36,477 nucleotides of DNA from Terriglobales bacterium. GTDB taxonomy: Bacteria; Acidobacteriota; Terriglobia; Terriglobales; Acidobacteriaceae. Where the stretch lies: assembly GCA_025934025.1 (NCBI GenBank), contig JAICYU010000012.1:1-36477 (forward strand), written 5' to 3'. The notes below the pieces were generated by a model, which was not told the origin of the DNA, searched no databases, and was given only the letters and a program-made list of their open reading frames with translations. Shown piece after piece: positions 1,385-23,211 of this stretch (positions within the stretch are counted from its first letter, which is position 1; the number at the start of each line of letters is the position of its first letter). The position numbers and the translations under genes are program-made.

Positions 1385-1972
1385 TTACGGGGTGTTGCCT
1401 ACTTTGCAGCCCGGGATAGCGCCGACGTCATCGGCAGACTTGAGCACCAACTGCGCAGGTGCCCCATTCAGATGACCAAACCCAGAAATCTCATACGGAG
1501 TTCCTTTTGGATCCATCTTTCTTGAATTTTGCTTAGACCAACGTTCAAACATTCCTGTATATGTAACGGCGATGCATCTGTCTGGCAAGTATTCGCGCAA
1601 TTTTTCCCATTTGGAATCTATTCTCTTCCGTGATTCGCGATCAAAATCAAATGCAACACCATGAATTATAAAAGTCAGATCGCTCGGCATTGTCCATGCA
1701 ATCGTGCTCGGCCAGACCTTTCCCTCAGTAACGAAAATTCCTGGACACTGTTCACCAACAAACCAAGCACCTTCTTCCGTGCCGACTACCCGGTCCCGAA
1801 TTCTTACCATCTTTCCATCGTATTCGGAAGCATGAGAGAGCGCTTCGCAAACACTCAGGGTAGGAATTGAGGCGGTATCTCCTGACCGGCATCGTGCCGG
1901 GAAACCGATGCAAAGGGCGAAACCGACTATGAGGCAAATTACAGACGACCAGTTGTGTTTTTTTCGAAACAC
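1385..1972 (-). CDS. Exported protein of unknown function, copy 1
   Basis: A 195-residue protein with a hydrophobic signal peptide (about residues 9-28, 'SVICLIVGFALCIGFPA') and a mature part opening with 'LSVCEALSHASEYDGKMVRIRDRVVGTEEG'. The 'YDGKMVRIR...V' region suggests a small OB-like beta-barrel, but that is a guess from pattern. It is a close paralogue of the gene at 2163-2783. GTG is the likely start, with GAGG about 9 nt upstream. It begins 11 nt after the stop of a short tip-like C-terminal remnant, the same order as the RHS-tip/partner pairs upstream. This suggests an immunity-type role in the cell envelope. Function is not recognised; the immunity role is inference. Confidence 0.7.
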   Translation of the reverse strand: MFRKKHNWSSVICLIVGFALCIGFPARCRSGDTASIPTLSVCEALSHASEYDGKMVRIRDRVVGTEEGAWFVGEQCPGIFVTEGKVWPSTIAWTMPSDLTFIIHGVAFDFDRESRKRIDSKWEKLREYLPDRCIAVTYTGMFERWSKQNSRKMDPKGTPYEISGFGHLNGAPAQLVLKSADDVGAIPGCKVGNTP

Positions 1973-2904: not shown

Positions 2905-3706
2905 TCACTTCTTTTGCTCAGAAACTATCGGTATAGAGCGATTACAAGCCGACCCTAGCTGCGATGGCTTGCAATAATAACTTATCGTCTGCTCATACGT
3001 CCCCCATCCGGGAGGATCTCCTGCCTCAACAAAAGGATTCACATATGGATATGACTCATCGTCTATAAACCACGAGTCTGATCGGATCACGACCTGTAAC
3101 CCACGAGCGGATATTCTAGAACGGAAATAATTGCTGAGTTCATCAGCAGTTGCCGCATTGAGGGTTCCTTCTTCTTCAACTTTTATTGCAATGCTGGGTA
3201 CGATTTCGGGCCGCCGGCTGTGCGGCAAGACTGGGCGAAGGGTCAATTCCAGAAGGTCGTAGCGCTGGCCGCCAACTTGGCCGTGAAATACATTCTCGCC
3301 TAAAATGCGTATTTCTTCCGTTGCGCCTGTTTTCCAACGAATTCGCAAAGTGGCTGAATCTCCAATTTTGACGAGCTCTGCAATCTCTGAGAGCCGGGAA
3401 GAAATATCCGAGTATTGATCGTGCCAGTATTGATATGAGTAGTCAGTTATTCCTTTACCAGAACGCAAAAGAAACACCAGGTCTCGTTCAGTATAGACCG
3501 TCAATTTGGCGACGTGAGCATTCGTGGAATCATCAACAAATGACCTTGCCAGCCGAACCAGATAGTCTTTTCGAGAATTGATCTGCTGAGATCAGGATGT
3601 CTTTTTGCATGGAATCCGACCGATCAATTCGGTAAACCTCTCTTGGTTCGGAACACATGGCTTGAGCACCTACCGCGAGGACAATTGCTAAAATTCTGAG
3701 CATCAT
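2905..3706 (-). pseudogene. Exported partner of RHS tip 3, frameshifted
   Basis: Two open frames join into one gene. The first, from ATG 3706, has a signal peptide ('MMLRILAIVLAVGAQA') and runs 'SEPREVYRIDRSDSM'. The second continues without a gap as 'NSRKDYLVRLARSFVDDSTNAH' and ends '...IPIVSEQKK'. The reading moves by one base somewhere in 3565-3590, and the 802-nt span is one base too long for a single frame. Restored, the product is about 266 residues. The start overlaps the stop of RHS tip 3 as ATGA, with GGAG about 6 nt upstream, so translation was coupled. There are no recognised domains. It could be a true mutation or an assembly error. By position it is the putative immunity partner of tip 3. 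Confidence 0.7.
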
Positions 3707-4584
3707 TGAGTACTCCGGCAATCATTTTTAAGCCAGCTGGAAATATCGGCAGTGCCGGGGTTGTTATGTTGTAAGCCGGCATCAGCAAAATTTGCAAAAA
3801 TTTCCTCGTCATTCCAGAGCGTGTAAGCATGCAGTTCCTCATGAAACAGATCGTTTGCTTCATCCGCCGTACTGAGGCCAAAAAAATTCGCTCCCAATAT
3901 AATCGCGGGATGGTCTCCATTAATTATCGTCACAGCATCGTGAGAATACACAGTTCGATACAGGCTTGTTCCATTCCCGTTTCCGCTCACATCATCTTGA
4001 GTAAAATTCGCGAATGGCGAATTGGGAGAGGGAACATCGTAAATGTTCGTGCTGTTCACGCTTTGAAGGAATTCAGATGAAGAGTAATCCGCGATATGAC
4101 CGGCGAACACCTGGTTGCAGTGAGACTTCTTGAAGTTCTTCAAACGCTTTCTGATCAAGCTGTCAGCATCGAAACTGTCACCATACCCATCCGGCTCCAG
4201 CAGATAGCCGCCGCCAATCTGAACCAAGTCTCCTCGGCGATTGACGAGCTCGCCTTCAAATAACGCAAATTCGTCAAAATTTCCCCATGCATTGGGAAAT
4301 CCCATTCGGTCCAGAAACAGCGTCAGCGCGGTCAGGAATTGGCCGCTGGGATCGTGGTAGTTGATGGGATCATTGGCAACGTAGCTGTACCGATTCAGGC
4401 TTTGCGGGCTGATCGTGCTCCCGGCCAGCGGATCTGGCGCGCTGAAGCGTCCAAGGCGGCTCACGTCGTAGCGCGCCATGGCGTAGTCGTTGCCCGATTC
4501 CGAGTCGCGCTCATGGGTAGTGAATTTCCACTTGGTCGCGCCCGAGTCATACCACATCTCGCCGAAGGGGAAATGCCCCTGCAA
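3703..4584 (-). CDS. Truncated RHS fragment with zincin-like tip 3
   Basis: About 293 residues, starting at a possible TTG. The first 95 or so are RHS core ending in the usual boundary ('GRFSAPDPL', 'SLNRYSYVANDPINYHDPSG'). After 'ALTLFLDR' comes a divergent tip. It carries HEELH at about residues 248-252, the HExxH zinc-binding and catalytic signature of zincin peptidases, with Asp a few residues later ('AYTLWNDEE'). Cysteines occur in 'KSHCNQVF' and near the C-terminus ('NDCRSTQ'). There is no signal peptide and no N-terminal RHS region, so this is an orphan tip rather than a full effector. A core this short, joined 24 nt after the WD40-like gene, indicates recombination. The peptidase activity is predicted from the motif only. 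Confidence 0.75.
   Translation of the reverse strand: MQGHFPFGEMWYDSGATKWKFTTHERDSESGNDYAMARYDVSRLGRFSAPDPLAGSTISPQSLNRYSYVANDPINYHDPSGQFLTALTLFLDRMGFPNAWGNFDEFALFEGELVNRRGDLVQIGGGYLLEPDGYGDSFDADSLIRKRLKNFKKSHCNQVFAGHIADYSSSEFLQSVNSTNIYDVPSPNSPFANFTQDDVSGNGNGTSLYRTVYSHDAVTIINGDHPAIILGANFFGLSTADEANDLFHEELHAYTLWNDEEIFANFADAGLQHNNPGTADISSWLKNDCRSTQ
4294..4582 (-). repeat. RHS core direct repeat, copy in tip 3
   Basis: 289 bp nearly identical to 6316-6603. It encodes 'QGHFPFGEMWYDSG' through 'ALTLFLDR'. Homology stops abruptly at both ends: at 4583, before the WD40-like gene, and at the core/tip junction. Such blocks are natural substrates for homologous exchange of tips. Confidence 0.85.
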
Positions 4585-4608
4585 AAACCCAAGCTTATCC
4601 TAAGTTTG

Positions 4609-5601
4609 TTACTTGTCTAAATCAGAGCGATATGACAGCACATAAAGTCGTTTCCTGTCTTGGATCTTCCAGACGCTCAGTTCTCCGGGATGAGAGGTAC
4701 GGTTTATCAGGTACGCTCCATTTGTGGTGACATACCCAGGTGTGACATCCCAAGTCGAAAACAGCGTCCCGGTCCTTAGGTCCCACTCACGCAAGGTCTG
4801 ATCTTCGCCGACTGAGATTGCGTGCTTACCGTCGTCCAAAACCGTTACGGCAATCACAGAGTCAGTATGTCCTGTAAGCGTGCGTGTGACCCGGCCAGTA
4901 TCCACGTCAAAGATTTTGATCTCGTTCCCGACAGCCGCCACTAAATGATTACCGTCTCTGGCGAACGCGAGATCACTCACAAACGAATTCATATCGCTCA
5001 AGTCGATATCTCGGACTGGCGCGGCAGTAGCGAAGCTCAAAAGGGAGATTCCAGTACCGTTGCTGACGGCGATCAGCTTCCCATCCGGATTGATCGCAGC
5101 TCGAACCAATTCCTGCGGAGTTCTCTTGCTCCAAATAACCTTGCGCGTGAGAATACTCCAGAGATCAATTTGATGTTGGTGGATAGCTAGAACAGAACCA
5201 AAAGAGGGCCCGAACAGCACCTGCTCGATACCGCCGCCTCCCAACTGCTGTAGGATTTGAGGGCTCTTCTGGGGGAGCAAAGGAATCAAGTGGAGTATCC
5301 CTCCTTCATCTCCCAATGCCAGTAGTTTCCTTTCGGAGGAGAAATCTAAAGCGCTCCCTCGGTAGCGATCACAATTTACAACAGGAAACTTTTTGTCATT
5401 TCGGGTATCCCATGCCATTACGGTACCATCTACCGCAGACGCGAACGCCTGGGCCGCATCAGGAGAGACCGTGAAAGCGGTCAATTCGGACCATTGGGAT
5501 CTCTCATGCATTTTCGACGGCACTGAATTCTGGGGACACGCAGCATGTACTCTTGAGAGCAGTAGAAATCCCAGTAACATCGAACTGAGAACGGTTTGCA
5601 T
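4609..5601 (-). CDS. Exported WD40-like beta-propeller, partner of RHS tip 2
   Basis: 330 residues with a signal peptide ('MQTVLSSMLLGFLLLSRVHA') and then WD40/quinoprotein-like blades. The clearest is 'GHTDSVIAVTVLDDG' followed by 'REWDLRTG', with others at 'VDGTVMAWDTRND' and 'NEIKIFDVDTG'. The start at 5601 is chosen because AAAGGA stands about 8 nt upstream; a TTG at 5634 would overlap the RHS stop. It follows RHS tip 2 by 29 nt on the same strand, so the two are probably co-transcribed. Propellers of this kind bind proteins and rarely catalyse. Its place suggests binding and neutralising the tip outside the cytoplasm, but that is inference; it could equally be an unrelated secreted propeller. 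Confidence 0.75.
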   Translation of the reverse strand: MQTVLSSMLLGFLLLSRVHAACPQNSVPSKMHERSQWSELTAFTVSPDAAQAFASAVDGTVMAWDTRNDKKFPVVNCDRYRGSALDFSSERKLLALGDEGGILHLIPLLPQKSPQILQQLGGGGIEQVLFGPSFGSVLAIHQHQIDLWSILTRKVIWSKRTPQELVRAAINPDGKLIAVSNGTGISLLSFATAAPVRDIDLSDMNSFVSDLAFARDGNHLVAAVGNEIKIFDVDTGRVTRTLTGHTDSVIAVTVLDDGKHAISVGEDQTLREWDLRTGTLFSTWDVTPGYVTTNGAYLINRTSHPGELSVWKIQDRKRLYVLSYRSDLDK

Positions 5602-5630
5602 CGAGAATTTCCTTTCGAGCGCAGATGGAA

Positions 5631-6908
5631 TCAATGGTTACAGTGCTCGTTAACGGCATTGGATATCTCAACACTGGCCCCCTGTGGAAGGCCCAATTGT
5701 GTTTCGAGGGCGCTGTCGCTTAGTCCCGTGACATTGTGCATTAGCTCATGTCCTACCGTGCCGACGCCCACGTGACTGTCGAACAAACCCCCGTTTCTAA
5801 AAAATACATTTGGGCCGAGCGGTTGCGCAGCCGCATTGACATTCGGGTTCTGCCGAAAAAAATCACCGACCGACTGGCTCGCGTTGCCTGGATTGTTGTT
5901 TGCTATACCACCTTGCTGAAGAGAAGCTGACGAATCGTTGCCTGAATATGCCTTTTGGTTAATTGCTCCTATGGCAACGAGCGTAGGATCTATGCCGTGG
6001 TTCACAAGGAAGTCAATACAGTCAGTGTTATTACTCAAGTTGCTCAAGAGCTTGGCAAGGCTCTTTAAATATCGGTTCTGATCTCGTGCTTTTAACGGGG
6101 CCAAGCTCCCGCCCGCCTGGTTGATCAGGTAAGAGTTTCCAAACATTGGAAACTCTTTGACCAGTTGAATCTCGCCATCGTCCGCGTCACGCAGCAAATC
6201 GCTGGTGCTGGCGTCTTCAAAGTCGAAAGTTGACCTGTTGGAGCGAAACCAATACAGAGTACCAGTCTGACGAGGTTCCATGAAATGGAACTCATCCCAG
6301 TTTTCACCAAATTGCGGGAAATCCCACCTGTCCAGAAACAGCGTCAGCGCGGTCAGGAATTGGCCGCTCGGATCGTGGTAGTTGATGGGGTCATTGGCAA
6401 CGTAGCTGTAACGATTCAGGCTTTGCGGGCTGATCGTGCTCCCGGCCAGCGGATCCGGCGCGCTGAAGCGGCCCAAACGGCTCACGTCGTAGCGCGCCAT
6501 GGCGTAGTCGTTCCCGGATTCGTCATCGCGCTCATAGGTCGTGAACTTCCACTTGGTTGTGCCCGAGTCATACCACATCTCGCCAAAGGGGAAATGCCCC
6601 TGCTGGCCGGTGATGTTGCCGGAGCTGTCCGTCAACAGACGCGGCGAGAGATGATCTGGGTGGTAGTAGGTCGCGCCGCCGGCGATCTGGGCCAGCAGCG
6701 TTGCGCCGGAATAAACGTATTCGCGCGAGGGTGCGGTGGGCGCAGCGCCGTTCACGTACTCGGCAATCACCTTGCCTCCGGAGAAGATGTAAACCGTGGT
6801 CGTCCCGCCCGAGACCTTTTTTACCCGCAGAGATTTGCAATCGTAGCTGTAGGTCGCGGTTGCGCCGCTCGCGGTGCTGGTTGCATTCAGCCGCTCTCTA
6901 ATTCGCAT
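5631..6908 (-). CDS. Truncated RHS fragment with zincin-like tip 2
   Basis: 425 residues from ATG 6908; a GTG at 6941 is also possible. RHS core runs from 'ATATYSYD' through 'YVYSGATLLAQ' and 'YYHPDHLSPRLLTDSSG' to the 'SLNRYSYVANDPINYHDPSG' boundary. The tip then carries HELMH at about residues 387-391, followed by 'NVTGLSD', which fits an HExxH zincin. Cysteines occur in 'NTDCIDFL' and in 'NEHCNH' at the very end, the same two places as in the other tips. The N-terminal thousands of residues of a normal RHS protein are missing, and the gene starts just after the stop of the preceding propeller gene. It is probably a displaced tip, expressed only by read-through or after recombination into a full RHS gene. 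Confidence 0.8.
   Translation of the reverse strand: MRIRERLNATSTASGATATYSYDCKSLRVKKVSGGTTTVYIFSGGKVIAEYVNGAAPTAPSREYVYSGATLLAQIAGGATYYHPDHLSPRLLTDSSGNITGQQGHFPFGEMWYDSGTTKWKFTTYERDDESGNDYAMARYDVSRLGRFSAPDPLAGSTISPQSLNRYSYVANDPINYHDPSGQFLTALTLFLDRWDFPQFGENWDEFHFMEPRQTGTLYWFRSNRSTFDFEDASTSDLLRDADDGEIQLVKEFPMFGNSYLINQAGGSLAPLKARDQNRYLKSLAKLLSNLSNNTDCIDFLVNHGIDPTLVAIGAINQKAYSGNDSSASLQQGGIANNNPGNASQSVGDFFRQNPNVNAAAQPLGPNVFFRNGGLFDSHVGVGTVGHELMHNVTGLSDSALETQLGLPQGASVEISNAVNEHCNH
6316..6603 (-). repeat. RHS core direct repeat, copy in tip 2
   Basis: 288 bp nearly identical to 4294-4582. Here the flanking RHS core continues further upstream (to about 6890), which shows that the copy in tip 3 is the shorter, more truncated one. 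Confidence 0.85.
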
Positions 6909-6946
6909 GATTCTGAGCTCAACAAGAAGATCACAAGCCACCTACT

Positions 6947-8080
6947 TCATGGATAAACCGAACGGAAGGTGCAGCCATCATCAACCGACTTGGCTACATA
7001 AAAATCAGTTCCCAGATACATTGTGTGCGAATTCTGAGGATCATAAAGCGCGGAATTTACAAACCCTATACGATCCGGTCCAACCTTCAATAAATACCAA
7101 GAGTTTCCCCCATCGTGAGATTGGTACAGCCCCTTGTTCGTAATGAGCAGAACATCGACGGAACTCTCTTTTTGAAATTCAATTTTATATACCTGCAGCC
7201 CTAAAGCCGCGCGGGCTCTCACTGAATCAGGGGAGACATTCAAAGTCTTTGCGGCAGCATCGATTTCATCTGCGCTTGATTGAGCAACAGGACGGCTTAA
7301 AGCATCCTGCTCTCCCACAGGCTTCCATGTGACGCCGCCATCCATTGTTTTAACGACACCATCTTTGGATACCCCAATCATCACCTTGGGATCCGATGGG
7401 CTGATTCCCAGTGAACTGCCAAACACCAGCGCGCCAGAAAAAAGATGCCACGTGTCTCCTGCATCGTAGGACACAAATGTCCCGGGTAACGGGTGCGATT
7501 CTTTAAGGGTTGTGGGATCGCGTTCATCGGGAACATACCAGCCAAAAGAGGCAAATATGGTTCGCGGATCAACAGGATTTACTGAGTCAAGGATGATATA
7601 GAGACGGGCTTTTGAATTATTTGATCTTCTTGCTGCAAACTGCACAGCGCTCAAGTCTTCGATTGTGTAGGCGGGCGTCGCCCAGCTCCGGCCTTGATCG
7701 AGCGATCGCAGATAGACTAAGCCTTCCAGCCTATAAACTACAGAGCCGTCATACGGACTCCTCTCGATTTGGGTGCCGCTTGAAAGATTCGTGCTCATCT
7801 GAGATTGGAGTAGCTGCCAGCTTGAGCCTCCATCGCTAGTTTTCAATACTTTTTTAAAAACAGCAGAGCGACTGTATGAAACGTCGGTAACATACAACGA
7901 CTCGGCCCTCTCATATGTAGAAAAATGCGATACCGTTTTATACGATGAAAGCAGATCTTGAGGGCGAGGCTCGAAGTTCACTCCCCCGGCCCGAAGGTCG
8001 CGACCACATAATCTCGGCGCAGAGGAACTTGGGGTAGAGAACGAACTGAGCAGGAAGACGGCTAGGAATATCAGTCTCAC
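6947..8080 (-). CDS. Exported Asp-box beta-propeller, partner of RHS tip 1
   Basis: 377 residues with a signal peptide ('MRLIFLAVFLLSSFSTPSSSA'). At least six Asp-box (BNR/Ycf48-like) turns are visible: SDGGSSW, SLDQGRSW, SYDAGDTW, TMDGGVTW, SHDGGNSW and SVDDGCTF. This is the signature of sialidase-, Ycf48- and VPS10-type propellers; no sialidase catalytic residues are evident, so a binding role is likelier. The GTG start overlaps the RHS stop as GTGA. A strong ribosome site (AAGGAGG) 6 nt upstream is written inside the last codons of the RHS tip ('KKGGQQ'), which means coupled translation. By position it is the putative immunity partner of tip 1; that role is not established. Confidence 0.8.
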   Translation of the reverse strand: MRLIFLAVFLLSSFSTPSSSAPRLCGRDLRAGGVNFEPRPQDLLSSYKTVSHFSTYERAESLYVTDVSYSRSAVFKKVLKTSDGGSSWQLLQSQMSTNLSSGTQIERSPYDGSVVYRLEGLVYLRSLDQGRSWATPAYTIEDLSAVQFAARRSNNSKARLYIILDSVNPVDPRTIFASFGWYVPDERDPTTLKESHPLPGTFVSYDAGDTWHLFSGALVFGSSLGISPSDPKVMIGVSKDGVVKTMDGGVTWKPVGEQDALSRPVAQSSADEIDAAAKTLNVSPDSVRARAALGLQVYKIEFQKESSVDVLLITNKGLYQSHDGGNSWYLLKVGPDRIGFVNSALYDPQNSHTMYLGTDFYVAKSVDDGCTFRSVYP

Positions 8081-9006
8081 TGCTGCCCTCCTTTTTTATC
8101 ATTTCCGCATTTCTCGTGTATCGCTTGCGAGAATAATGCGGATGCTTTGTTTTCGTTATCCTGACTATCGGGCGTATTCGCCGGGAGTTTATGAGCTGCA
8201 ACGGCAAGCTGAATATCGTTCTCACCATAAGGAAACGTGTGGAATGCTTCATGAAGTAAGGTGTCGGGAACGTCTTCGTCTTCAGGATGATCGACATGCA
8301 CGGTAATGTTGCCCGGGCTTGTCCCAGGATATGAAAATGGGTCTACGTGAGCTGTTACATCTCTTCGTCCGCCAGCTTGGAAATAGGCATCGTGCGAACG
8401 ATCGGGGGTGGGGATGACTATGAGTTTGTCAAAACTATGAAGAAAGTCATCCAAATTGTCCGAGTTTTTTGTCCCAGCCAAGATTTGTTTAAGGAACTGA
8501 GCACAATCTGTGTCACTTAGTTTCGCTCTGGCTTGATTTCGTCCGTCGCTTATCAGATCAGGTCCCCCTCCATAAGGCTCAGGCTCGAAGAGGTATGGCT
8601 CACGCTCGCAGTTGTCCCCGCTTCCCGAATTGACGCAGAACTGCTGAAAGCCTCCAAGAAGATCAAATTCATCCCAACCAGAGCCAAAACTGAAACCTAT
8701 ATCGAGGAACCGGTCGAGCGCGAGAATAAACCTCCCGGCTGGATCGATCGAGTTGATGGGGTCGTTCGCCACGTAGCTGTAACGGTTCAGGCTTTGCGGG
8801 CTGATCGTGCTGGGCGGGTGGCCCACAGTTCCTCGGTCTTGAAAACTTTGATCCCTACTCAAGAAGGATGTCGGGTGCCCTACCCTTTGCGCAGAAGCTG
8901 CCCGGGGTTGGCAGCTTCGAGCAAAAGGGTGGGAGAGCAAGATCATCCAATTTTTACCAGTCCTTTCTCCCCAAACCAGTAATGACGAAAGCTGCTCCAG
9001 CGCCAT
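8077..9006 (-). CDS. Truncated RHS fragment with zincin-like tip 1
   Basis: True RHS sequence begins only at 8811 ('STISPQSLNRYSYVANDPIN'). Upstream of that the open frame runs into the RAYT mobile unit in a non-native frame. About 20 residues of core are followed by a tip that carries HEAFH (DNA 8239-8253) in 'DTLLHEAFHTFPYGEND', an HExxH zincin motif. Cysteines occur in 'SDTDCAQFL' and in 'HEKCGN' near the end. The core/tip boundary motif differs slightly from tips 2 and 3 ('INSIDPAGRF' for 'INYHDPSGQF'). The gene has lost its own start and most of its core, so it is effectively a pseudogene unless transcribed and translated from within the mobile unit. Confidence 0.7.
   Translation of the reverse strand: MALEQLSSLLVWGERTGKNWMILLSHPFARSCQPRAASAQRVGHPTSFLSRDQSFQDRGTVGHPPSTISPQSLNRYSYVANDPINSIDPAGRFILALDRFLDIGFSFGSGWDEFDLLGGFQQFCVNSGSGDNCEREPYLFEPEPYGGGPDLISDGRNQARAKLSDTDCAQFLKQILAGTKNSDNLDDFLHSFDKLIVIPTPDRSHDAYFQAGGRRDVTAHVDPFSYPGTSPGNITVHVDHPEDEDVPDTLLHEAFHTFPYGENDIQLAVAAHKLPANTPDSQDNENKASALFSQAIHEKCGNDKKGGQQ
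8745..8811 (-). repeat. RHS core repeat, shortest copy
   Basis: The core segment shared with tips 2 and 3 around the codons for 'STISPQSLNRYSYVANDPIN'. Homology ends sharply at 8811, where the inverted terminal repeat of the RAYT unit begins at 8812. Confidence 0.7.
8864..8934. repeat. REP palindrome left of RAYT
   Basis: Contains 'ccctaccctttg' and 'caaaagggtggg' arms around an inner hairpin (gaagctgcc...ggcagcttc). The outer 25 bp (8864-8888) are an exact inverted match to 9512-9536. Confidence 0.75.
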
Positions 9007-9449
9007 AGCTCTGGAGAGGTCACTAAGCCACGTTTCACCGGATTGCGGTGCATATACCGCAGCTTTTCAATGTGTTTACGCTGCGTATATACATTGAAGT
9101 CGTAGTAGCGCCTTTGCCAGAAGGCGGGAGTCGGTTCGATTTCCCAAAACAACAGTTGTGTTGTGGTCTTCTTCTTCCGACGACAGCGGCGCGAGACGCG
9201 CTGCTTCAACACCTGCAGTACGAGCGAGGGGCTGCCCACCTTCGGTTCGCTGATCAGGAAATGGAAGTGCTCGGGCATGACGACATAGCCCGCTACAATG
9301 AAGTCGTACTTGGTTCGAACTTCCTCTAAAATCCTCAGGAACAGGTCGCGCCGCCCGGCTGAGCGGAGAAACTGCTGCCGCCGATAGCAGCTGCAGGTAA
9401 TGAAATGCCAGTCGCCACCTCCCCAGATTCGGCGCAGTCCTTTGGGCAT
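8943..9449 (-). CDS. REP-associated tyrosine transposase (RAYT)
   Basis: 168 residues of the Y1/HUH transposase family. These single-strand endonucleases recognise REP palindromes and use one catalytic Tyr. The HUH pair is visible as H61 and H63 in 'VMPEHFHFLI', preceded by the usual 'WHFITCSCYRR' strand. The C-terminal helix 'HIEKLRYMHRNPVKRGLV' holds the candidate catalytic Tyr and the family-typical NPV..GLV motif, and the product ends 'WRWSSFRHYW', also typical. Length and both motifs are complete, so the enzyme looks intact. It is flanked by inverted REP copies that are probably its substrates. Confidence 0.92.
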   Translation of the reverse strand: MPKGLRRIWGGGDWHFITCSCYRRQQFLRSAGRRDLFLRILEEVRTKYDFIVAGYVVMPEHFHFLISEPKVGSPSLVLQVLKQRVSRRCRRKKKTTTQLLFWEIEPTPAFWQRRYYDFNVYTQRKHIEKLRYMHRNPVKRGLVTSPELWRWSSFRHYWFGEKGLVKIG

Positions 9450-9466
9450 CGAAGAGCGTCATTTTA

Positions 9467-9537
9467 TCCCACCCTTTCCCTCGCGGCTGCAAAAATCGCG
9501 CAGCGCTCTGGAAAGGGTAGGGCACCCGACATCCTTC
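9467..9537. repeat. REP palindrome right of RAYT
   Basis: Inverted partner of 8864-8934, with 'cccaccctttccc' and 'gaaagggtaggg' arms. The inner loop sequence differs from the left copy while the arms are kept, as expected for hairpins conserved by structure. Confidence 0.75.
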
Positions 9538-9586
9538 ATCAGGATGATCAGAAACTTTAAGAGTCAGAAAGGTGGGCCACCCGCCC

Positions 9587-10149
9587 TGGGTTGGCAGACA
9601 TTGGCCGGATGGCGGCGACAACTATGGCCGTAAGGACGGCTGAGAGATTGGCCTATTTCGCCGTTGATTCGCGCAACAAAATCGGCGAGAATGGGTTTGC
9701 AATTAAGCCGTCCCAGGACGGGGAAGACAAGATATTTGAAAATAGAAGAGGCAGTACTTGGTATTTAGTACTTGGTACTTGGCTAAAAGCTCTTGGCTCT
9801 TTAGCTATTGGCGACCCTAGCGCAACAAGCAGGCAGATCGGATCTTAACGCTCACACCTGGTCCGCGGCGGTATGTCAACAAAACTCTCCTAGGGAAGTA
9901 AGAATTAAAACGCCCTCAGGCGGCGCTTCCCTTCCGCTGCGATGACTCTGGGATGACGCGAGCTAAACCCTTTAGATTCGGGGATCACGGGGATGACAGG
10001 GGAGGGGTGAACCCTCCTGGGATCGGTTCAGCGGATCATCGGTTCCACCAGGAGATCGGAAACCCGAGCGCCGGATGAATCGCGCTCGTTCCGCCGGGAA
10101 CAATGCCGGTCCATGGAGAAGATTCAAGCCCCCGGGGCACCCCTTATCC
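9587..10149. other. Intergenic stretch between two mobile elements
   Basis: No convincing gene in 563 bp. An open frame at 9591-9848 (plus) lacks a ribosome site and family resemblance. The stretch holds a degenerate tandem repeat (9753-9812) and a short perfect hairpin GGAGGG/CCCTCC at 10001-10017 without a T-run. It may contain the worn remains of whatever lay upstream of the RHS tips before the insertions. Confidence 0.5.
9753..9812. repeat. Degenerate 'ttagtacttgg' tandem repeat
   Basis: Repeats of the form agtacttgg / tttagtacttgg / tacttgg, grading into 'ctcttggctctttagctattgg'. The period is irregular. It resembles in style the heptanucleotide array at 23212 and lies outside any gene. 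Confidence 0.5.
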
Positions 10150-16620: not shown

Positions 16621-17028
16621 CTATGGCTGGTTTTCTCTTCTGTAGAATCCCCCCTTCATTGTTACGAAATCGAAGAATCTGACCCTGTCATTTTCGAAAG
16701 AAATGACAATCGCCTTCGCCAAATCAAACCCTTTAGTCATGACGCCAGGCTCCCAGACCCTATTCTGATACACAAAAACGACCTGCTCGGCCACACGATC
16801 CTCTCCTTCCCAGCGATCGTCGCCCTTTAATATCAGCTCATTTTTGCGTGACTTCAGATCGATATAAATTTCCCGCGTAACAATCCCAATCCCACCTTTA
16901 GGGAGATATTCACTATCAGCAAACATTTTTTTCTCCGGGGTGCTTTGCGGTTTTTTTGCCGATTTGTCAACCTGCTTGGCAGAACAAACCAAGCTGGCGA
17001 GCAAAAGATATATAGCAATTCTGAGCAT
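16621..17028 (-). CDS. Small exported protein, partner of full-length RHS
   Basis: 135 residues with a signal peptide ('MLRIAIYLLLASLVCSA') and a charged mature part ('YLPKGGIGIVTREIYIDLKSRKNELILKGDDRWEG...'). I recognise no domain; the pattern suggests a small beta-rich protein. The ATG follows the RHS stop by 14 nt with GAGG 5 nt upstream, so it is the last gene of the RHS transcript. Its place, size and export signal match what is expected of an immunity protein acting where the RHS tip would be delivered. That role is inferred. The N-terminus 'MLRIA' resembles that of the partner gene at 3706, which may reflect only signal-peptide likeness. Confidence 0.75.
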   Translation of the reverse strand: MLRIAIYLLLASLVCSAKQVDKSAKKPQSTPEKKMFADSEYLPKGGIGIVTREIYIDLKSRKNELILKGDDRWEGEDRVAEQVVFVYQNRVWEPGVMTKGFDLAKAIVISFENDRVRFFDFVTMKGGFYRRENQP

Positions 17029-17042
17029 AAACGCCTCACATT

Positions 17043-20000
17043 TTATGGAGCCGCGAAGTGGCTCGTGTTTACGACAGTTGGAGCTCCGTGAGCAGACGTC
17101 ATTTGTTGATTCAAATGGTAGGGGTTGGCTATGTTACCGCTGTACCACGTTCTTCCATATTCTCGGGCGACTACCGGACCAATTCCATTTGGAAGGCTAA
17201 CTTTGGTCTTAGATGCAACTGAAAGCGCAGCGCTCGTGCACTGTGACGTAGGAGAGTAGTTCGGGGGGTGAGCTTTAAATGTCGAGATCGCATCCACTGC
17301 TGTTTTCATCTGGCTAGAAGAAATTGAAATTTCCCATGTATTTGCATTTCCTGTTAAGGGCCAGTGAATGTTTCCGGGTAAATCTCCATTTTGAAATGCG
17401 CCCTTATTCATGGCGCCAATAGACTCGCCTGGGCCGAAGCTTAGAATAGAGATGATCGTCCCCGAAGCATTCCTCACGTAAACAAAAGTGTGACCGGGGT
17501 CTGCGGCGACATTCACGACATTATTGTTTACGGCCGATTGCGCAGGAGGCTCGATACCGATACCCAGCTTAGCGCTAGATTGCGCCTGTCGAGCTTGTTC
17601 GACCTGCCAAGCAAAAACATAGTTTGACATTAGCGCCAGTTGGCGAGCGGCCGATGTGGTGTTCGGGCCGCCTTCGTTTCCTGAAGAGCCGTCATCTTCC
17701 TTCGTTAGGCTGTCAAATTCATGATTGATGTGCCCGTCGAGGTCCCGTCCCGTGATTGGATTGTTTTCAACATATGCATAAAGATTCAGGGTTTGCGGAT
17801 TCGAAAGGTTGGCATACGGCACCGCTGCAGGGTGCCCGGACCAGTCGGGCGTCAGGAAGCGGCCCCAAGGACTCGAGTAATAGCGCGCGCCGAAGTAATC
17901 CATCTGCGATTCCGAATCCCGTTCTTTGCCGGTGAATTTGTAATGGTTCACCGCAGAGCCACTGACGAGATATTGCGAGCCAAAGGGCGAGTAATCGGAT
18001 TCTTCCTCGATCGTCCCCGTTGAGCTGACGACCATGCTGGTGGAACCGAGATGGTCGGACAGGTAGTAATGAACGGAGCTCCCGGGCTGGTCAATGCGGG
18101 CCACGCGCTGGCCATTGAAGAAGACGTATTCCGATTTCACCGCGCCGGTGAGGTCGGTTTCGGCGATGACCCCCAACGAACTGTACCAGTACAGCGTGCC
18201 AGTGGATCCACTTGATTTCTTGACGCGGTTTCCATCGGCATCGTAGGTGTAAGTTGTTCCAGCAGTCGATGCGAGTCGATTCTCCGCATCGAAGCTGTAG
18301 GTGGTCGCTCCGTTGGCGATCACGTTCCCGGCTGCGTCGTAAGAGAGGCAGGTAGCACGATTATTGGCATCTCCGGCGCACTGCCAGTTGCCGCCGTTCG
18401 CTTTGCCGGCCATGCGCGACATCTGCATATTGCCCCAAGGATCAAGGACGTAATTCTCGCCCCAGGAATATGCTCCGGTATTGCCGCTGGTCCAGCCGGT
18501 GGTGACGCGATTCAAAGCGTCATAGGTAAAGTTCTGGTTGCGAGTCTGGTCGCGGTAATTGGTGACGCTGAACACGTTCCCATTATTGCCCGCCGCATAG
18601 CTAAAGTTATAGCCGCGATCCATCAGATTGCCGTGAACCGCAGCATCGGTGCAGTTGGGCGCTACTGATCCCGAGGTAAACGCGGTTATGCGGCAGAGCT
18701 GAAGACGCGGGTTAAAGATAAAGCTGTTGCTGATGGATGCGCCGGTGGTGAAGCTGGTGAGAGCGCCCGGAGGGTTATAGACAGCAGCGCTGGCATAACT
18801 GGTGCCGTTCGCATCCACTGCCTTGGTCATCTGGCCTGCAGCATTGGGCGTGTAATTCACCACGCGGTTGCTCGGATATGTGACGCTCGTGAGCTGTCCG
18901 GCCTTGTCATAGCCATAGCTCATGGTTTTAGAGACGCCCGAGATAGTGCGCTGTTCGGTCCTGATGCGGCCCATCAGGTCGTAAGTGTAACTGCCGCTTC
19001 CGGCCTGGTCGGTCTGCGAGGTCATGTGGCCCACGCCTTCTGTTCCTGCGTCATAGGCGTAACTAACAACAGGCGTGCTGAGCGGGCACGATTGCGCGGC
19101 GTAGGCTTTGCCCGTAACGCGATGCAGCGGATCGTAGCAGTAGCTGATGGTCTGAGTGGCCGCACCGGTCTGATTGGGAGCTAGCGAGGTCTTCTGGAGT
19201 AGGTTGCCGTCAGCGTCATAGCTGTAGCTGATCATGCCCGATTCCGGATTGTGGGCAGTGAGCAGTTGCAAGAGCGAGTTGTAGGTGAACGAGCGCACGC
19301 GCCACTGGCTTGAGTTGTTCGCCGACGGGTCGCCTTGCTGCGTGACCTGGGTGAGATTGCCCAGAGTGTCATAGCCGTAGAGCGTGACGTAGTAATTGTG
19401 ATCGAGCGAGGGGCCTTCCGGCGGTGCGCCGTTTTCCAGAGTTGTGCCCGAAGAAGTAAACGAAGGCGGAGAGAACGTGGCCTGAGTCTGCGTGCTGCTG
19501 GGCGTGACGCTGACGGTAGTGCCGTCGGCTGTGGCGGAAAGATCGTTCCAGGTAATCGTAATGGAGCCGCCAGAGTTGGTGGCGTGCACGGGAGAACCGG
19601 CGCGATTGAGTCCGGTGCTGCCGGTGCCGACGAGAGCCGAAGCCACAGCGGCAGCCGTGGAGTTTGTGCTCGGGCCGTAAGGCACGCTGGCCGTAAATGC
19701 GGGATTGGAGTTGACGGTTACGGTGACCGTGCCCTGATCGTAGATGGTGTTGGCATTCACGCCGCCGGTAAGTGTGCTTCCGGACTGGCTGACCGGGAAC
19801 GAGGTAGTGCCATTGCCGAAATCAGCGCCGTCAGAGGTTGCAGAACTGGCGCTGAGCGAGTAGTTTGCGCCCGCGTCCACAGCCTTGCTAATGAAAGAAA
19901 CCGTGCTGCCGGAGAGGCTGGGCGTGACCGGTGATCCGGCAGCGAGAAAGCCGTTATAGATGCTTTGGGCAATTCCGGTTAGGCGGCTTCCCTGGCCGTA

Positions 20001-23000
20001 AAACACCTGCACATTGAATCCGTTAATGGAAACATTGACAGAGCCTTCGTCGTAAATGGTGGGGCAGGAGATGAAGCCGTTCTTGAGCGTGACGCAATCG
20101 TCAATATTGGGATCCTGGATACCGCGTTCATTGCCTCCGACGGTGATCCAACCGCTCGCCTGAGTGGCCGAAGAGGTCTGGCTCTTAAGCCCATCGGCGA
20201 GAGTTAGCGTTCCGAAAGGTTCCTGACCGCTGAAGTTGTCCCCCGGCTCGTCTACTTCAATCAAGCGGCCCAGCGCGTCAGAGATGCTGCGCCGCTGGTG
20301 GCCGGCTTCATCGGTGACCGTTACGGTAGTGCCCGAGTAGCTGGTGCAGATGTTCTTGCTTTGACAGTCGGTGGGCGTTGCTCCCGAAGGAAGCGGCGTG
20401 CCGTCCTGCGGCACAACCTGGACCATACGGCCAAGGGCGTCATAGTAGGTGGTGCCGATGCCATCGGTAGCGCTGGCGGTAGCGCGATGGGGATTGCTGA
20501 CGGTGAACTTGCGGCCGAGATTGTCGTATGTGGTATCCACCACGTCGGCGCCCGCAGAGTCGGAATCTAGGCTCGTTTTGGTGACGCGGCCGAGTCCATC
20601 GTAAACCGTGGTGTTGACGATGCTGGGATCCGGCGTGGCGGTTTCAGTCTGCGTGACAGTGAGCGGCAGCGTGTCGCCGTGGTAGCCGTACGTTGTGGAG
20701 CCACCTTCGGCGGTAGTGGCCGTGAGCAGGCGATTCATCAGGTCGTAGGTGAAGGTTGCGCCGGAGCGCCCGGCGCGAATGTCGTTTTCATCGCGCTTGC
20801 TCTGGATCAGACCGCTGCATGAATAATAACTCGCCTGGGTGCGCTGGGTGAGCGCGTTCGTGACCTGCGTGAGGAATGCTTGAGTGTTCGAGCTTGCCGC
20901 AAGGCAGAGCGAATCGGCAAAGCTATCGAGATAGCTGAAACTGGTGGTGTGGCCTCCGGGATCGGTGGTGGAGAGCAGGTTGCCGAGATCGTCGAAAGTG
21001 TTGGTGGTTGGGAGCCAAACGCCGTCAGTGTTGCGCCAGCGGCTGACGGAAGTCAGGTTGCCGCGGACCGTGTTTGAAGTGTTGAAGGCGCAGTAGTCAT
21101 GGTTGGGGACGCCGCCGGTCTGGCAGCTTCCCGTAGAGGCGAGCGTCCCGCCATCGTAGGCGTTCTGGGTTTGTGAGACGACGTTGCCTGCTCCATCGTA
21201 AACCGTGGTGTTGAGCACGCGGTCCACGATGTTGGCGCTGGCGTATGCGGTAACGGCATCATGCTGATAGGTGTAGTCGGTGCGGCGGAGGAGCGGCCCG
21301 GGCGCTCCCTGGCCGAAGCCGAACTCGCGCGTTTCTGTGACGTTGGAGCGGTTGAAAGAGATCTCGCCATTGTTGTCCGGCACCGGATCGTAGTCGGTTT
21401 CCACCCGGCTGACCAAGCCGTTATCTAGGGTGGTGGTGATGCGGATGGGCCGGCTCATGCTCTTTTGAACCTGTGTTGAATCGCCATCGCCCACGTTCAC
21501 TGGAATGGTGGAGTAATCGGTGGCGATAGTTTTCAGCAGGTGGCCTGAAGCGACTGTTCCTTGATAGTACTGCGCCTGAGTCTCAAGCGGTGTGCCGAAG
21601 CCATTCAGGGTAGGTATGAATGTGTGGGTGGTTTGATTACCCTCGGGATCAGCCACGGTTGTGGTCGCCGTCCCGGCGGTCCCATACGAGTAGGTCCAGG
21701 CTTTTTCTGAAGCAGCAGTGCCATCGGCGCTGACGGCGCGCTTGGTTACGCCGCGGCTGCTCACGTCGAGCCCGGGCGTTGGGCCATACTCATAGCGGAT
21801 ATAGCCGCCAGAAGGCAGATCGATGCGGAGCAGTTCGCCGTAATGGCCTGGAGTGGTTCCACTGTCATAAGTGAAGTTGTAGGCCAGTCCGTTGGGAAGA
21901 TCAATCTTGCGCGCAAGGCGCATGCTCCCGCAAAACTCGGTGGTATCCGGATAGCCAAAGTTGGTGCACACAGGAAGAGCGACCCATTCAATGCGGGCTT
22001 TCTGCTGATTGCCACTGGAATCGGTGGCGATCCAGTCTTCATATTGCGCTCCGTCGGGCAGAGTGCCGGTGGCGTACTGAATGGTCCGGCCGAGCGTGTC
22101 AGTCTCTCCAGTGACGGCTCCGGTGGAAGGATTGCCGGCTGCGGTGATCATGTTTCCGTTGGCATCTTTGCGCAGAAAAACAGGAAAGCCGCTCTGGTCC
22201 CCCATGACGCATGTGCCGTCTTTGAGAGTCACAATAGGATGTACGGAATCAGTTACGTCAATTTTCATGCCGCTGCCGTCGAGCGCGTAGCCGGTCAGTT
22301 TGACGTGAACGCATTGCGATTGCACCGGAGTTACCGGGGAAGTGACGACATCGAAAACATGCGGAGTTCCGGTTTCATCCATGTAAGTGTAGTCGGCATC
22401 TTCTTCCTGCTGATGGCCGTTACCGCAGCCGGTTATGTAACGCCGGTTAGTGGAAAATGTCATGGTGTTGTCGGCATATATCCAAAACGGCGGGTCCGGC
22501 GGAGGACACTCGGCAATAGTTGGATCACACGGGGGCAGGCTGTCCTGGAACCAGGTCTTGTTGGTGTGGCTCCAGAACTTCTGGTGGCTGATGCCGCGGC
22601 CGGCGTGGCCGAAGAGCGGAATGCGAACGTCAAGTGCGCCGTTAGCAAAGCCGATCTGATCAATGTCCCCCACCTGATAGGAGCCGAAGGGCTGGTCGCC
22701 GTGCGGATCAGTCATCTGCGCGGGAACGCCGGACGACTGCGCGAGAGCGGCTGTGGGGCTGACCAACAACAGCAGACAGGCGAGACGTAGCAAAGAAGCA
22801 AAGTTACGGAAGCCGCGCAGCAGGGAGAACGCGGTTGCCGCAGTGAGGAAACAGGCGAGCAGGCCCAGCGCAAGCAGCGATTCCCCGCCACTGATTTGCG
22901 ATTGCGCCAGTGAAGAGAACCCGGTCAGCGCGGCCATAAGATAGATGAGAGCGCGTTTGAGTCTTGCCGCGAGAAGCCCACGCCTGGCCGGGAGCAGAAT

Positions 23001-23123
23001 GGCAACCGAGAGCGCCCGGTCGATTCTTGCGGCAGAGAGGAGCATCTGCGCTGTATTTTTTCCCCAAAAAGGCCGTTGCGAGAATCGCCAAACCTCAACC
23101 TGCCGATATGGTAGCCTGCGCAT
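17043..23123 (-). CDS. Full-length RHS-repeat protein with peptidase-like tip
   Basis: About 2026 residues from ATG 23123, chosen for GGAGG 5 nt upstream; ATG 23156 is less likely. Near the N-terminus are three hydrophobic segments, the last looking like a signal peptide ('LACLLLLVSPTAALAQS'). Then come a DPHGDQPFG-type leader, many YD/RHS repeats ('YDALNRVT', 'YTYDADGNRVKK'), and the core boundary 'NHYKFTGKERDSESQMDYFGARYYSSPWGRFLTPDW'. An insertion at about residues 1000-1220 carries two similar beta-domains, each opening 'IYD(E/Q)G'. The tip has H1878 in 'GHTFVYVRN' and C1962 in 'SQCTSAAL', the His-before-Cys order of permuted papain/NlpC-like peptidases. RHS proteins form a shell that holds such tips. 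The activity is predicted. Confidence 0.9.
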   Translation of the reverse strand: MRRLPYRQVEVWRFSQRPFWGKNTAQMLLSAARIDRALSVAILLPARRGLLAARLKRALIYLMAALTGFSSLAQSQISGGESLLALGLLACFLTAATAFSLLRGFRNFASLLRLACLLLLVSPTAALAQSSGVPAQMTDPHGDQPFGSYQVGDIDQIGFANGALDVRIPLFGHAGRGISHQKFWSHTNKTWFQDSLPPCDPTIAECPPPDPPFWIYADNTMTFSTNRRYITGCGNGHQQEEDADYTYMDETGTPHVFDVVTSPVTPVQSQCVHVKLTGYALDGSGMKIDVTDSVHPIVTLKDGTCVMGDQSGFPVFLRKDANGNMITAAGNPSTGAVTGETDTLGRTIQYATGTLPDGAQYEDWIATDSSGNQQKARIEWVALPVCTNFGYPDTTEFCGSMRLARKIDLPNGLAYNFTYDSGTTPGHYGELLRIDLPSGGYIRYEYGPTPGLDVSSRGVTKRAVSADGTAASEKAWTYSYGTAGTATTTVADPEGNQTTHTFIPTLNGFGTPLETQAQYYQGTVASGHLLKTIATDYSTIPVNVGDGDSTQVQKSMSRPIRITTTLDNGLVSRVETDYDPVPDNNGEISFNRSNVTETREFGFGQGAPGPLLRRTDYTYQHDAVTAYASANIVDRVLNTTVYDGAGNVVSQTQNAYDGGTLASTGSCQTGGVPNHDYCAFNTSNTVRGNLTSVSRWRNTDGVWLPTTNTFDDLGNLLSTTDPGGHTTSFSYLDSFADSLCLAASSNTQAFLTQVTNALTQRTQASYYSCSGLIQSKRDENDIRAGRSGATFTYDLMNRLLTATTAEGGSTTYGYHGDTLPLTVTQTETATPDPSIVNTTVYDGLGRVTKTSLDSDSAGADVVDTTYDNLGRKFTVSNPHRATASATDGIGTTYYDALGRMVQVVPQDGTPLPSGATPTDCQSKNICTSYSGTTVTVTDEAGHQRRSISDALGRLIEVDEPGDNFSGQEPFGTLTLADGLKSQTSSATQASGWITVGGNERGIQDPNIDDCVTLKNGFISCPTIYDEGSVNVSINGFNVQVFYGQGSRLTGIAQSIYNGFLAAGSPVTPSLSGSTVSFISKAVDAGANYSLSASSATSDGADFGNGTTSFPVSQSGSTLTGGVNANTIYDQGTVTVTVNSNPAFTASVPYGPSTNSTAAAVASALVGTGSTGLNRAGSPVHATNSGGSITITWNDLSATADGTTVSVTPSSTQTQATFSPPSFTSSGTTLENGAPPEGPSLDHNYYVTLYGYDTLGNLTQVTQQGDPSANNSSQWRVRSFTYNSLLQLLTAHNPESGMISYSYDADGNLLQKTSLAPNQTGAATQTISYCYDPLHRVTGKAYAAQSCPLSTPVVSYAYDAGTEGVGHMTSQTDQAGSGSYTYDLMGRIRTEQRTISGVSKTMSYGYDKAGQLTSVTYPSNRVVNYTPNAAGQMTKAVDANGTSYASAAVYNPPGALTSFTTGASISNSFIFNPRLQLCRITAFTSGSVAPNCTDAAVHGNLMDRGYNFSYAAGNNGNVFSVTNYRDQTRNQNFTYDALNRVTTGWTSGNTGAYSWGENYVLDPWGNMQMSRMAGKANGGNWQCAGDANNRATCLSYDAAGNVIANGATTYSFDAENRLASTAGTTYTYDADGNRVKKSSGSTGTLYWYSSLGVIAETDLTGAVKSEYVFFNGQRVARIDQPGSSVHYYLSDHLGSTSMVVSSTGTIEEESDYSPFGSQYLVSGSAVNHYKFTGKERDSESQMDYFGARYYSSPWGRFLTPDWSGHPAAVPYANLSNPQTLNLYAYVENNPITGRDLDGHINHEFDSLTKEDDGSSGNEGGPNTTSAARQLALMSNYVFAWQVEQARQAQSSAKLGIGIEPPAQSAVNNNVVNVAADPGHTFVYVRNASGTIISILSFGPGESIGAMNKGAFQNGDLPGNIHWPLTGNANTWEISISSSQMKTAVDAISTFKAHPPNYSPTSQCTSAALSVASKTKVSLPNGIGPVVAREYGRTWYSGNIANPYHLNQQMTSAHGAPTVVNTSHFAAP

Positions 23124-23211
23124 AGTTGCCTCCGGTACGTTTAGTCGCTCCTTCATGTGACTGGGTACAGCAACCGCAGGTTCAGCCGTCTGACGAAGAA
23201 AGTTCTGAGCC

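What the first reader, a model, noticed from the sequence alone, without database searches (positions are those of the whole stretch)
3703..8811. Three tips of one zincin family with two conserved cysteines
Aligned by eye, the tips share HExxH, an acidic residue 6-7 positions later, a Cys in (T/S)(D/H)C..(F/V), and a Cys within about 11 residues of the C-terminus (HCNH, KCGN, DCRS). Two cysteines kept in otherwise divergent sequences suggest a disulfide, hence folding or action outside the cytoplasm. I do not know a named family with this exact pattern.
Basis: partly seen in the sequence, partly recalled or inferred. Interest (0 to 1): 0.62.

Follow-up and report, generated by a model that had tools for sequence, protein, structure and literature searches.

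The report
Rhs zincin tips with exported guardians
Three neighbouring bacterial gene fragments each end in a probable zinc-protease toxin of one undescribed family, each followed by a secreted protein that probably protects the producer, which suggests these toxins attack the cell envelope of rival bacteria rather than the inside of the cell.

Summary
The three tips share HExxH, an acidic residue 6-8 positions later, and one Cys on each side. They are one family: a profile built without T1 and T3 finds T1 (E 1.1e-20) and T3 (6.7e-5); one without T2 finds T2 (2.6e-22); best control or shuffle 0.61-0.68. I aligned 33 relatives with them. H, E, H and the C-terminal Cys are invariant in 36 of 36 rows (my filter required that Cys), the Asp in 35, the upstream Cys in 27 of 30 rows called full-length. 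No Pfam or NCBIfam model reaches its cut-off. Strongest new evidence: the gene directly downstream is called exported or membrane-anchored for 34 of 37 tips, against 22 of 53 Rhs tips without HExxH, and partner similarity follows tip similarity (13 pairs; permutation maximum 7). Two window partners are secreted beta-propellers. Best reading: orphan Rhs toxin-immunity modules; an exported zincin toxin folded with a disulfide, acting in the envelope and neutralised there. Structure prediction settled neither fold nor Cys distance, so the disulfide is inferred. Function is untested.

The parts
8080..8703 (-). T3 tip domain; HEAFH 8239-8253, upstream Cys 8503-8505, C-terminal Cys 8107-8109
8704..8811 (-). 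Rhs core remnant before T3, ending at 8811 where an element with an IS200-like (Y1_Tnp) transposase begins
   Evidence: 61 bp at 93.4% identity to the T2 Rhs part; Y1_Tnp in ORF 8946-9449, E 1.2e-14
6947..8080 (-). T3 partner: exported BNR/sortilin-type beta-propeller, 377 aa, overlaps the T3 stop by 4 bases
   Evidence: (BNR 1e-6, Sortilin-Vps10 3e-7)
5634..6323 (-). T2 tip domain; HELMH 5736-5750, Asp 5715-5717, upstream Cys 6018-6020, C-terminal Cys 5640-5642
6324..6941 (-). Rhs core piece carrying T2, no signal peptide by eye (orphan)
   Evidence: TIGR03696 6e-15; 288 bp shared with T1 at 92.4%
4609..5634 (-). T2 partner: exported WD40 beta-propeller; overlaps the T2 stop by 4 bases if the first possible start is used
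   Evidence: WD40 2.1e-14; 28% identity to the partner of the related tip L009, E 1e-26
3706..4311 (-). T1 tip domain; HEELH 3829-3843, Asp 3808-3810, upstream Cys 4117-4119, C-terminal Cys 3718-3720
4312..4584 (-). Rhs core piece carrying T1 (orphan)
   Evidence: TIGR03696 5.1e-16
3533..3721 (-). T1 partner, first piece: signal peptide, then the frame ends (broken gene as assembled)
2905..3504 (-). T1 partner, second piece in another frame; same family as the partners of L074, L075, L090 and L107
   Evidence: (E 9e-11 to the L090 partner)

Best explanation
The three tips belong to one family of zincin metallopeptidase toxin domains carried at the C-terminus of secreted Rhs proteins, and sometimes of other secreted repeat proteins, in Acidobacteriota. 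The carrier leaves the producer by a Sec-type signal peptide and the tip folds outside the cytoplasm, held by a disulfide between a Cys in an early helix and a Cys at the extreme C-terminus. Zinc is held by the two His of HExxH and the Asp about seven residues on. The tip cuts a protein in the envelope (periplasm or surface) of a neighbouring cell. The gene directly downstream encodes an exported or membrane-anchored immunity protein, differing between subfamilies: WD40 propeller beside T2, BNR propeller beside T3, a family without a Pfam match beside T1. The window holds three displaced (orphan) modules of this kind, each with an Rhs stretch through which it could recombine onto a full-length rhs gene. 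Shown here: the family, the conserved residues, the module order, exported partners, tip-partner co-inheritance, exchange between carriers. Inferred: catalysis, zinc ligands, disulfide, toxicity, immunity, site of action.
For: One family: leave-out profiles. Catalytic signature: H, E, H in 36 of 36 rows, Asp in 35 of 36. Zinc ligands: GtgA, a solved zincin, binds zinc by both HExxH His and an Asp 7 residues after the second His (PMC6166728, passages), the spacing of T1 and T2; the best PDB profile match, not significant, is AIP56 with HEIVHHVTGSSD (E 0.034). Disulfide: Cys pair in aligned columns, the only two Cys of the domain in 20 of 30 full rows. Exported carriers: signal peptides on 3 of 5 carrier frames. 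Exported partners: 34 of 37 tips against 22 of 53 Rhs tips without HExxH, Fisher p 6.5e-7; in Rhs genes sampled without regard to tip type, 8 of 8 tips with HExxH plus C-terminal Cys have one. Cognate pairs: 13 locus pairs similar in both tip and partner, permutation mean 1.3, maximum 7, 0 of 2000 reach it; T2 and L009 share tip and WD40 partner across families. Carrier exchange: same domain behind Rhs (L172), Kelch/TIG/Big_2 (L173) and CBM96/TIG (L176). Precedent: the VgrG2b C-terminal zincin is toxic in the periplasm and not in the cytoplasm, and its downstream immunity PA0261 needs its signal peptide (PMC6899460, passages).
Against: No experiment. Predicted models are weak and the one searched matches no solved zincin. 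Export calls use my own hydrophobicity rule, not SignalP, and also catch membrane anchors; three of 37 fail (T1 frame broken; L084 and L085, which I read by eye as exported). Half of the other Rhs partners with an ORF are also called exported (22 of 44), and so are 4 of 5 partners of HExxH tips without the C-terminal Cys, so export is enriched, not unique. Of the 8 unselected tips with the pattern, 4 (L113, L125, L132, L152) are not clear members by profile (E 0.002 to 9). Of 60 locus pairs with similar tips, 47 have partners with no detected similarity; 4 of the 13 co-similar pairs lie within one genome, and relatedness is not corrected. T3 and L056 both have BNR-type partners, yet their tips show no BLAST similarity (E 5.9). 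No exported start was found on carrier frames L175 and L176.
Confidence: 0.74

Rival explanations
1. The tips are zincin toxins that act in the cytoplasm of the target; the exported partners guard only during transit through the producer's periplasm, or do something else.
For: Cysteines near the end are not tied to exported partners among other tips (12 of 22 against 12 of 22); many Rhs toxins known from the literature act in the cytoplasm (recalled).
Against: A cytoplasmic toxin needs a cytoplasmic immunity protein against siblings; partners of this family are called exported in 34 of 37, and a reducing cytoplasm would undo a conserved disulfide.
Confidence: 0.1
2. The domain is a self-processing or tip-releasing protease at the end of the carrier (as proposed for the PVC-metallopeptidase), not a toxin; the partner is an inhibitor or chaperone that times release.
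For: Releasing metallopeptidases exist in polymorphic toxins (PMC3482391, passages); T2 has a sub-threshold match to eCIS_core (E 0.0054, 17.3 bits against a cut-off of 22).
Against: Releasing proteases sit N-terminal to a toxin domain; here the zincin is the last domain, ending shortly after its last Cys in most rows, and it is the exchanged part.
Confidence: 0.08
3. The two cysteines are not bonded: they are independent, or one is a metal ligand or a cysteine switch that blocks the zinc until reduced or removed.
For: Adjacency could not be tested; one member (L073) lacks the upstream Cys yet keeps the other.
Against: In 20 of 30 full rows these two are the only cysteines of the domain; carriers look exported, and Cys counts in other Rhs tips are mostly even (39 of 47 with any Cys), as expected of disulfides.
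Confidence: 0.12
4. These are secreted housekeeping or nutrient-scavenging proteases with an adjacent secreted accessory protein, and no conflict role.
For: Two of the three carriers scanned are Kelch/TIG/Big_2 or CBM96/TIG proteins rather than Rhs.
Against: Displaced tip-partner modules in a row, two of them sharing 288 bp of Rhs DNA at 92.4%, strong tip divergence and co-inherited partners are what toxin-immunity modules look like.
Confidence: 0.1

Closest known systems
Tox-MPTase1-5 (Zhang et al. 2012, PMC3482391, passages)
   Same: Zincin toxin tips behind Rhs repeats; HExxH; MPTase5 is listed with HEELH, the form seen in T1
   Different: None of the 36 members matches a Pfam family of that name at E up to 0.05; the immunity column is '-' for MPTase1-5 in that table, whereas the modules here have an exported partner
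VgrG2b C-terminal zincin with PA0261 (PMC6899460, passages)
   Same: HExxH toxin acting in the periplasm; immunity gene directly downstream, exported, with partly conserved Cys
   Different: T6SS spike carrier, different organisms; homology of the domains was not tested; the disulfide discussed there is in the immunity protein
NleC/GtgA/AIP56 zincins (PMC6166728, passages)
   Same: HExxH plus Asp third ligand, spacing H-x6-D in GtgA; AIP56 is the best PDB profile match (E 0.034, not significant)
   Different: Effectors and a toxin that cleave NF-kB inside animal cells; no immunity protein known to me
Orphan rhs-CT/rhsI modules of Salmonella (PMC3967940, passages)
   Same: Displaced Rhs C-termini with linked immunity genes and a stretch of near-identical rhs DNA (522 bp at 95% there; 288 bp at 92.4% between T1 and T2 here)
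   Different: No full-length parent with this core found in the held genome (nearest core 60% identical); exported partners

Membership tests
Zincin metallopeptidases | HExxH motif on a helix | tested here: met
   36 of 36 rows (HExxH was also a collection filter); helix 121-137 around it in the model of L060:5001-5507
Zincin metallopeptidases | zincin fold | tested here: inconclusive
   model pLDDT 63.0, pTM 0.65; no Foldseek match at E 0.001, best VIA Z 3.3 to unrelated folds
Asp-ligand zincins of the NleC/GtgA/AIP56 type | Asp 7 residues after the second His (position, not coordination) | tested here: met
   exact in T1 and T2; T3 has Glu at +6 and Asp at +8; Asp aligned in 35 of 36 rows, with spacing varying by a residue or two
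Asp-ligand zincins of the NleC/GtgA/AIP56 type | sequence homology | tested here: inconclusive
   AIP56 E 0.034, profile of 36 against PDB sequences
Tox-MPTase1-5 | match to a family profile | tested here: inconclusive
   no such Pfam family at E up to 0.05 for 36 members; whether Pfam holds models of all five was not checked
eCIS_core (PF13699) | score above the curated cut-off | tested here: not met
   T2 17.3 bits against 22; 2 of 36 members match at E up to 0.05
Polymorphic toxins (Rhs type) | variable C-terminal domain behind an Rhs core | tested here: met
   TIGR03696 above cut-off before T1 and T2; T3 has a remnant below cut-off
Polymorphic toxins (Rhs type) | partner gene directly downstream, co-inherited with the tip | tested here: met
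   position and co-inheritance; neutralisation not testable here
Polymorphic toxins (Rhs type) | toxicity of the tip | not testable with these tools
   needs expression assays

The most novel reading that the evidence does not exclude
A whole clade of zincin toxin tips attacks the bacterial envelope and has recruited several unrelated exported scaffolds as immunity proteins, among them complete secreted WD40 and BNR/sortilin-like beta-propellers, which would be a new job for the propeller fold (a decoy or active-site plug for a metalloprotease toxin) and would fill the empty immunity column of the known Rhs metallopeptidase tips.
Probability: 0.5. Interest if true: 0.66.

Novelty: new variant of a known kind. 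Interest (0 to 1): 0.55.

Why it matters
Zincin tips are listed among polymorphic toxins, but the 2012 survey shows no immunity protein for its five MPTase families. Here is a zincin family with a co-inherited partner gene beside the tips, so specificity, site of action and neutralisation become testable. It also gives Acidobacteriota, abundant in soil (recalled), a recurrent and recognisable candidate weapon, and it suggests that several unrelated secreted folds, propellers included, serve as envelope immunity proteins.

Tried and rejected
Pfam, NCBIfam, PHROGs and PADLOC scans gave no tip family. The DppA, MCR-1 and pyruvate carboxylase names are single weak hits that I take as chance. A 71-residue T2 query in 200 genomes of the window's own family found only itself, and a T3 query in 200 relatives gave no tip among its seven weak hits by my pattern scan; the longer T2 query and profiles were needed. 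A genome-contig scan gave only 4 loci of 66 pattern matches; viral contigs gave none of 8. Structure prediction of T2 is too poor to use; the model of the L060 tip found no zincin, which proves nothing either way. Rfam: no match in the window. Rejected: that the C-terminal Cys alone marks the family (28 of 53 other tips have one), and that such a Cys predicts an exported partner. T3 paired with L056 by eye failed BLAST. A first control count with a regular expression for the Rhs core lost most loci and was replaced by match coordinates.

Rows dropped before counts: weak matches outside L009, L010 and L013 (a pattern scan only, some frames read); L050 (not examined); L051 and L052 (frames not tip-like); L078 and L079 (no Cys near the end); exact duplicates (L055, L060-L064, L065, L066, L071, L083, L091 and window copies); a second, shorter HExx frame on L013. 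The control took 70 of 113 Rhs core matches and lost 4 (one running off the contig, three with under 250 bp downstream). L044_773, a second HExxH tip on the L044 contig, is in the partner counts but not in A6. Members were collected with profiles that contained T2, and all three window tips.
Full report
What is there. On the minus strand of 2905-8811 lie three modules in a row, each made of an Rhs core piece, a tip and a partner gene: T3 (tip 8080-8703) with partner 6947-8080; T2 (5634-6323) with partner 4609-5634; T1 (3706-4311) with partner pieces 3533-3721 and 2905-3504. With the starts chosen each partner overlaps the tip's stop by 4 bases (for T1, its first piece). T1 and T2 carry the Rhs-associated core above its cut-off, T3 a remnant below it (TIGR03696); the Rhs DNA of T1 and T2 is 92.4% identical over 288 bp, and T3 keeps 61 bp at 90-93%. 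T3's core ends at 8811, where an element with an IS200-like transposase (ORF 8946-9449, Y1_Tnp 1.2e-14) begins. By eye none of the three frames begins with a signal peptide or a full Rhs repeat region: they look like displaced, orphan modules of the kind described for Salmonella rhs loci (PMC3967940, passages). No full-length parent with this core was found in the held genome of 362 contigs; the nearest core is 60% identical.

One family. Pairwise alignment ties T1 to T3 but not T1 to T2. Searches over genomes of the same class, phylum and two named families brought in 33 further tips; aligned with the window's three (A6) the invariant columns with all rows present are H, E, H and the last Cys, with Asp in 35 of 36 rows. 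A profile built without T1 and T3 finds T1 at 1.1e-20 and T3 at 6.7e-5; one without T2 finds T2 at 2.6e-22; the best of 53 Rhs tips without HExxH and 330 shuffles is 0.61-0.68. Genomes with a profile match: 14 of 349 in the class at E 0.01, 20 of 237 in one family at 1e-3, 1 of 89 in another, 4 of 297 across the phylum; a few of these matches are not tips. The family is Bryobacteraceae, judged by the identity of three of its tips with those of a named Bryobacteraceae record, and the phylum Acidobacteriota by the titles of the records.

The cysteines. Upstream Cys: 27 of 30 rows that I called full-length; two of the three exceptions are short ORFs, one is a true loss, and one of the 27 (L056) looks out of frame there. 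Last Cys: 36 of 36, but collection required a Cys within 25 residues of the end. Exactly two Cys in the domain: 20 of 30. Two results cut against over-reading this. A Cys that near the end is common in Rhs tips without HExxH (28 of 53), and there it is unrelated to whether the partner is called exported (12 of 22 in both classes). In passing, Cys counts of those tips are mostly even (39 of the 47 that have any, p 5.5e-6; 29 of 40 in the last 160 residues, p 0.006), so paired cysteines may be general for Rhs tips of this clade. That fits export: of five carrier frames whose start region was held, three have a Sec-type signal peptide (L172, L173, L174), two show none (L175, L176), and L177 runs off its contig.

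The partners. The gene directly downstream is called exported or membrane-anchored by a hydrophobicity rule in 34 of 37 tips (36 of A6 plus a second tip on the L044 contig). The failures are T1, whose partner frame is broken but begins with a signal peptide, and L084 and L085, which I read by eye as exported. Control: of 113 Rhs core matches in 41 genomes I examined 70 and kept 66. Tips without HExxH have an exported partner in 22 of 53 (22 of 44 with any ORF); tips with HExxH and a C-terminal Cys in 8 of 8; other HExxH tips in 4 of 5, so export is not special to the Cys-pair tips. One of the 8 (L117) was already in A6, and 4 of the 8 (L113, L125, L132, L152) are not clear family members by profile. 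Partner similarity follows tip similarity: of 60 locus pairs with similar tips 13 also have similar partners, of 886 other pairs 8 do; the permutation mean is 1.3, the maximum 7, and none of 2000 reaches 13. Four of the 13 lie within one genome, and ancestry is not corrected. The window's pairs take part: T2 and the tip of L009 share 34% identity and both have secreted WD40 propellers (28% identity, E 1e-26); the second piece of T1's partner belongs with the partners of L074, L075, L090 and L107, two of which (L107, L074) are among T1's five closest tips. T3's partner is a BNR/sortilin-type propeller; L056, in another family of the phylum, also has one, but their tips are not similar by BLAST and the partners only weakly (E 0.001). 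Over 44 partner proteins Pfam finds WD40 in 2, BNR in 2 and CarboxypepD_reg in 4 at E 0.01.

Carriers. The same domain ends an Rhs protein (L172), a Kelch/TIG/Big_2 protein (L173) and a CBM96/Fn3_assoc/TIG protein (L176), so it moves between large repeat carriers, as polymorphic toxin tips do.

Mechanism. The conserved candidates for catalysis are HExxH and the Asp about 7 residues on. In GtgA that Asp, at the spacing of T1 and T2, is the third zinc ligand (PMC6166728, passages); the best PDB profile match, AIP56, has the same arrangement but is not significant (E 0.034). The nearest working precedent is VgrG2b, a zincin toxic in the periplasm and not in the cytoplasm, neutralised by a downstream immunity protein that needs its signal peptide (PMC6899460, passages). 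I therefore propose a zincin toxin of the envelope with exported immunity. Shown: family, residues, module order, exported partners, co-inheritance. Inferred: zinc binding, disulfide, toxicity, immunity, target site. The substrate is unknown.

Structure. T2 modelled at mean pLDDT 41.7. A better-supported relative (L060:5001-5507) reached 63.0 with pTM 0.65; HExxH lies in helix 121-137, the upstream Cys 26 in helix 24-35 and the last Cys 166 in helix 156-167. Coordinates are not exposed, so the Cys distance could not be read, and Foldseek and VIA-align found no zincin. This is inconclusive.

Known or new. No Pfam or NCBIfam family covers the tips. The 2012 survey of polymorphic toxins lists Tox-MPTase1-5 without immunity proteins (PMC3482391, passages). 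Searches for Rhs zincins, propeller immunity and Acidobacteria listed no paper whose title or abstract start describes this family or propellers as its immunity; only open-licence PMC papers are held, and I read passages of five. A 2026 paper on Teneurin-like proteins (PMC13018210, passages) reports a further gene directly downstream of almost all such genes, in six phyla including Acidobacteriota. I rate this a new variant of a known kind.

Noticed in passing
53 Rhs tips without HExxH among loci L092-L160: Cys counts are mostly even: 39 of 47 tips with any Cys (p 5.5e-6), as if disulfides were general in Rhs tips of this clade, whether or not the partner is exported.
   Followed up: partly
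window 8811-9600: IS200-like (Y1_Tnp) element with what look like inverted ends inside the Rhs core before T3, cutting T3 off from any Rhs parent.
   Followed up: partly
window 3533-3721 and 2905-3504: T1's partner gene is split over two frames as assembled: a broken immunity gene or an assembly error.
   Followed up: partly
window 1385-1972 and 2163-2783: Two similar proteins of about 200 aa, exported by eye, in tandem after T1's module, without a Pfam family above cut-off; perhaps further immunity-like genes.
   Followed up: no
window 16621-23156: A long Rhs gene (2037 aa) with a different, unrecognised tip, followed by a small protein that looks exported: the same layout with another tip.
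   Followed up: no
L173 and L176: The zincin tip ends Kelch/TIG/Big_2 and CBM96/TIG proteins instead of Rhs.
   Followed up: partly
L100, L105, L120, L138, L142; own genome C127 (L167): Other Rhs tips with HExxH that lack a Cys close to the C-terminus; probably further zincin tip families.
   Followed up: no
L044 and L071: Identical tip sequence in two genomes that the tool assigns to different families (G257, G888): recent transfer or binning error.
   Followed up: no
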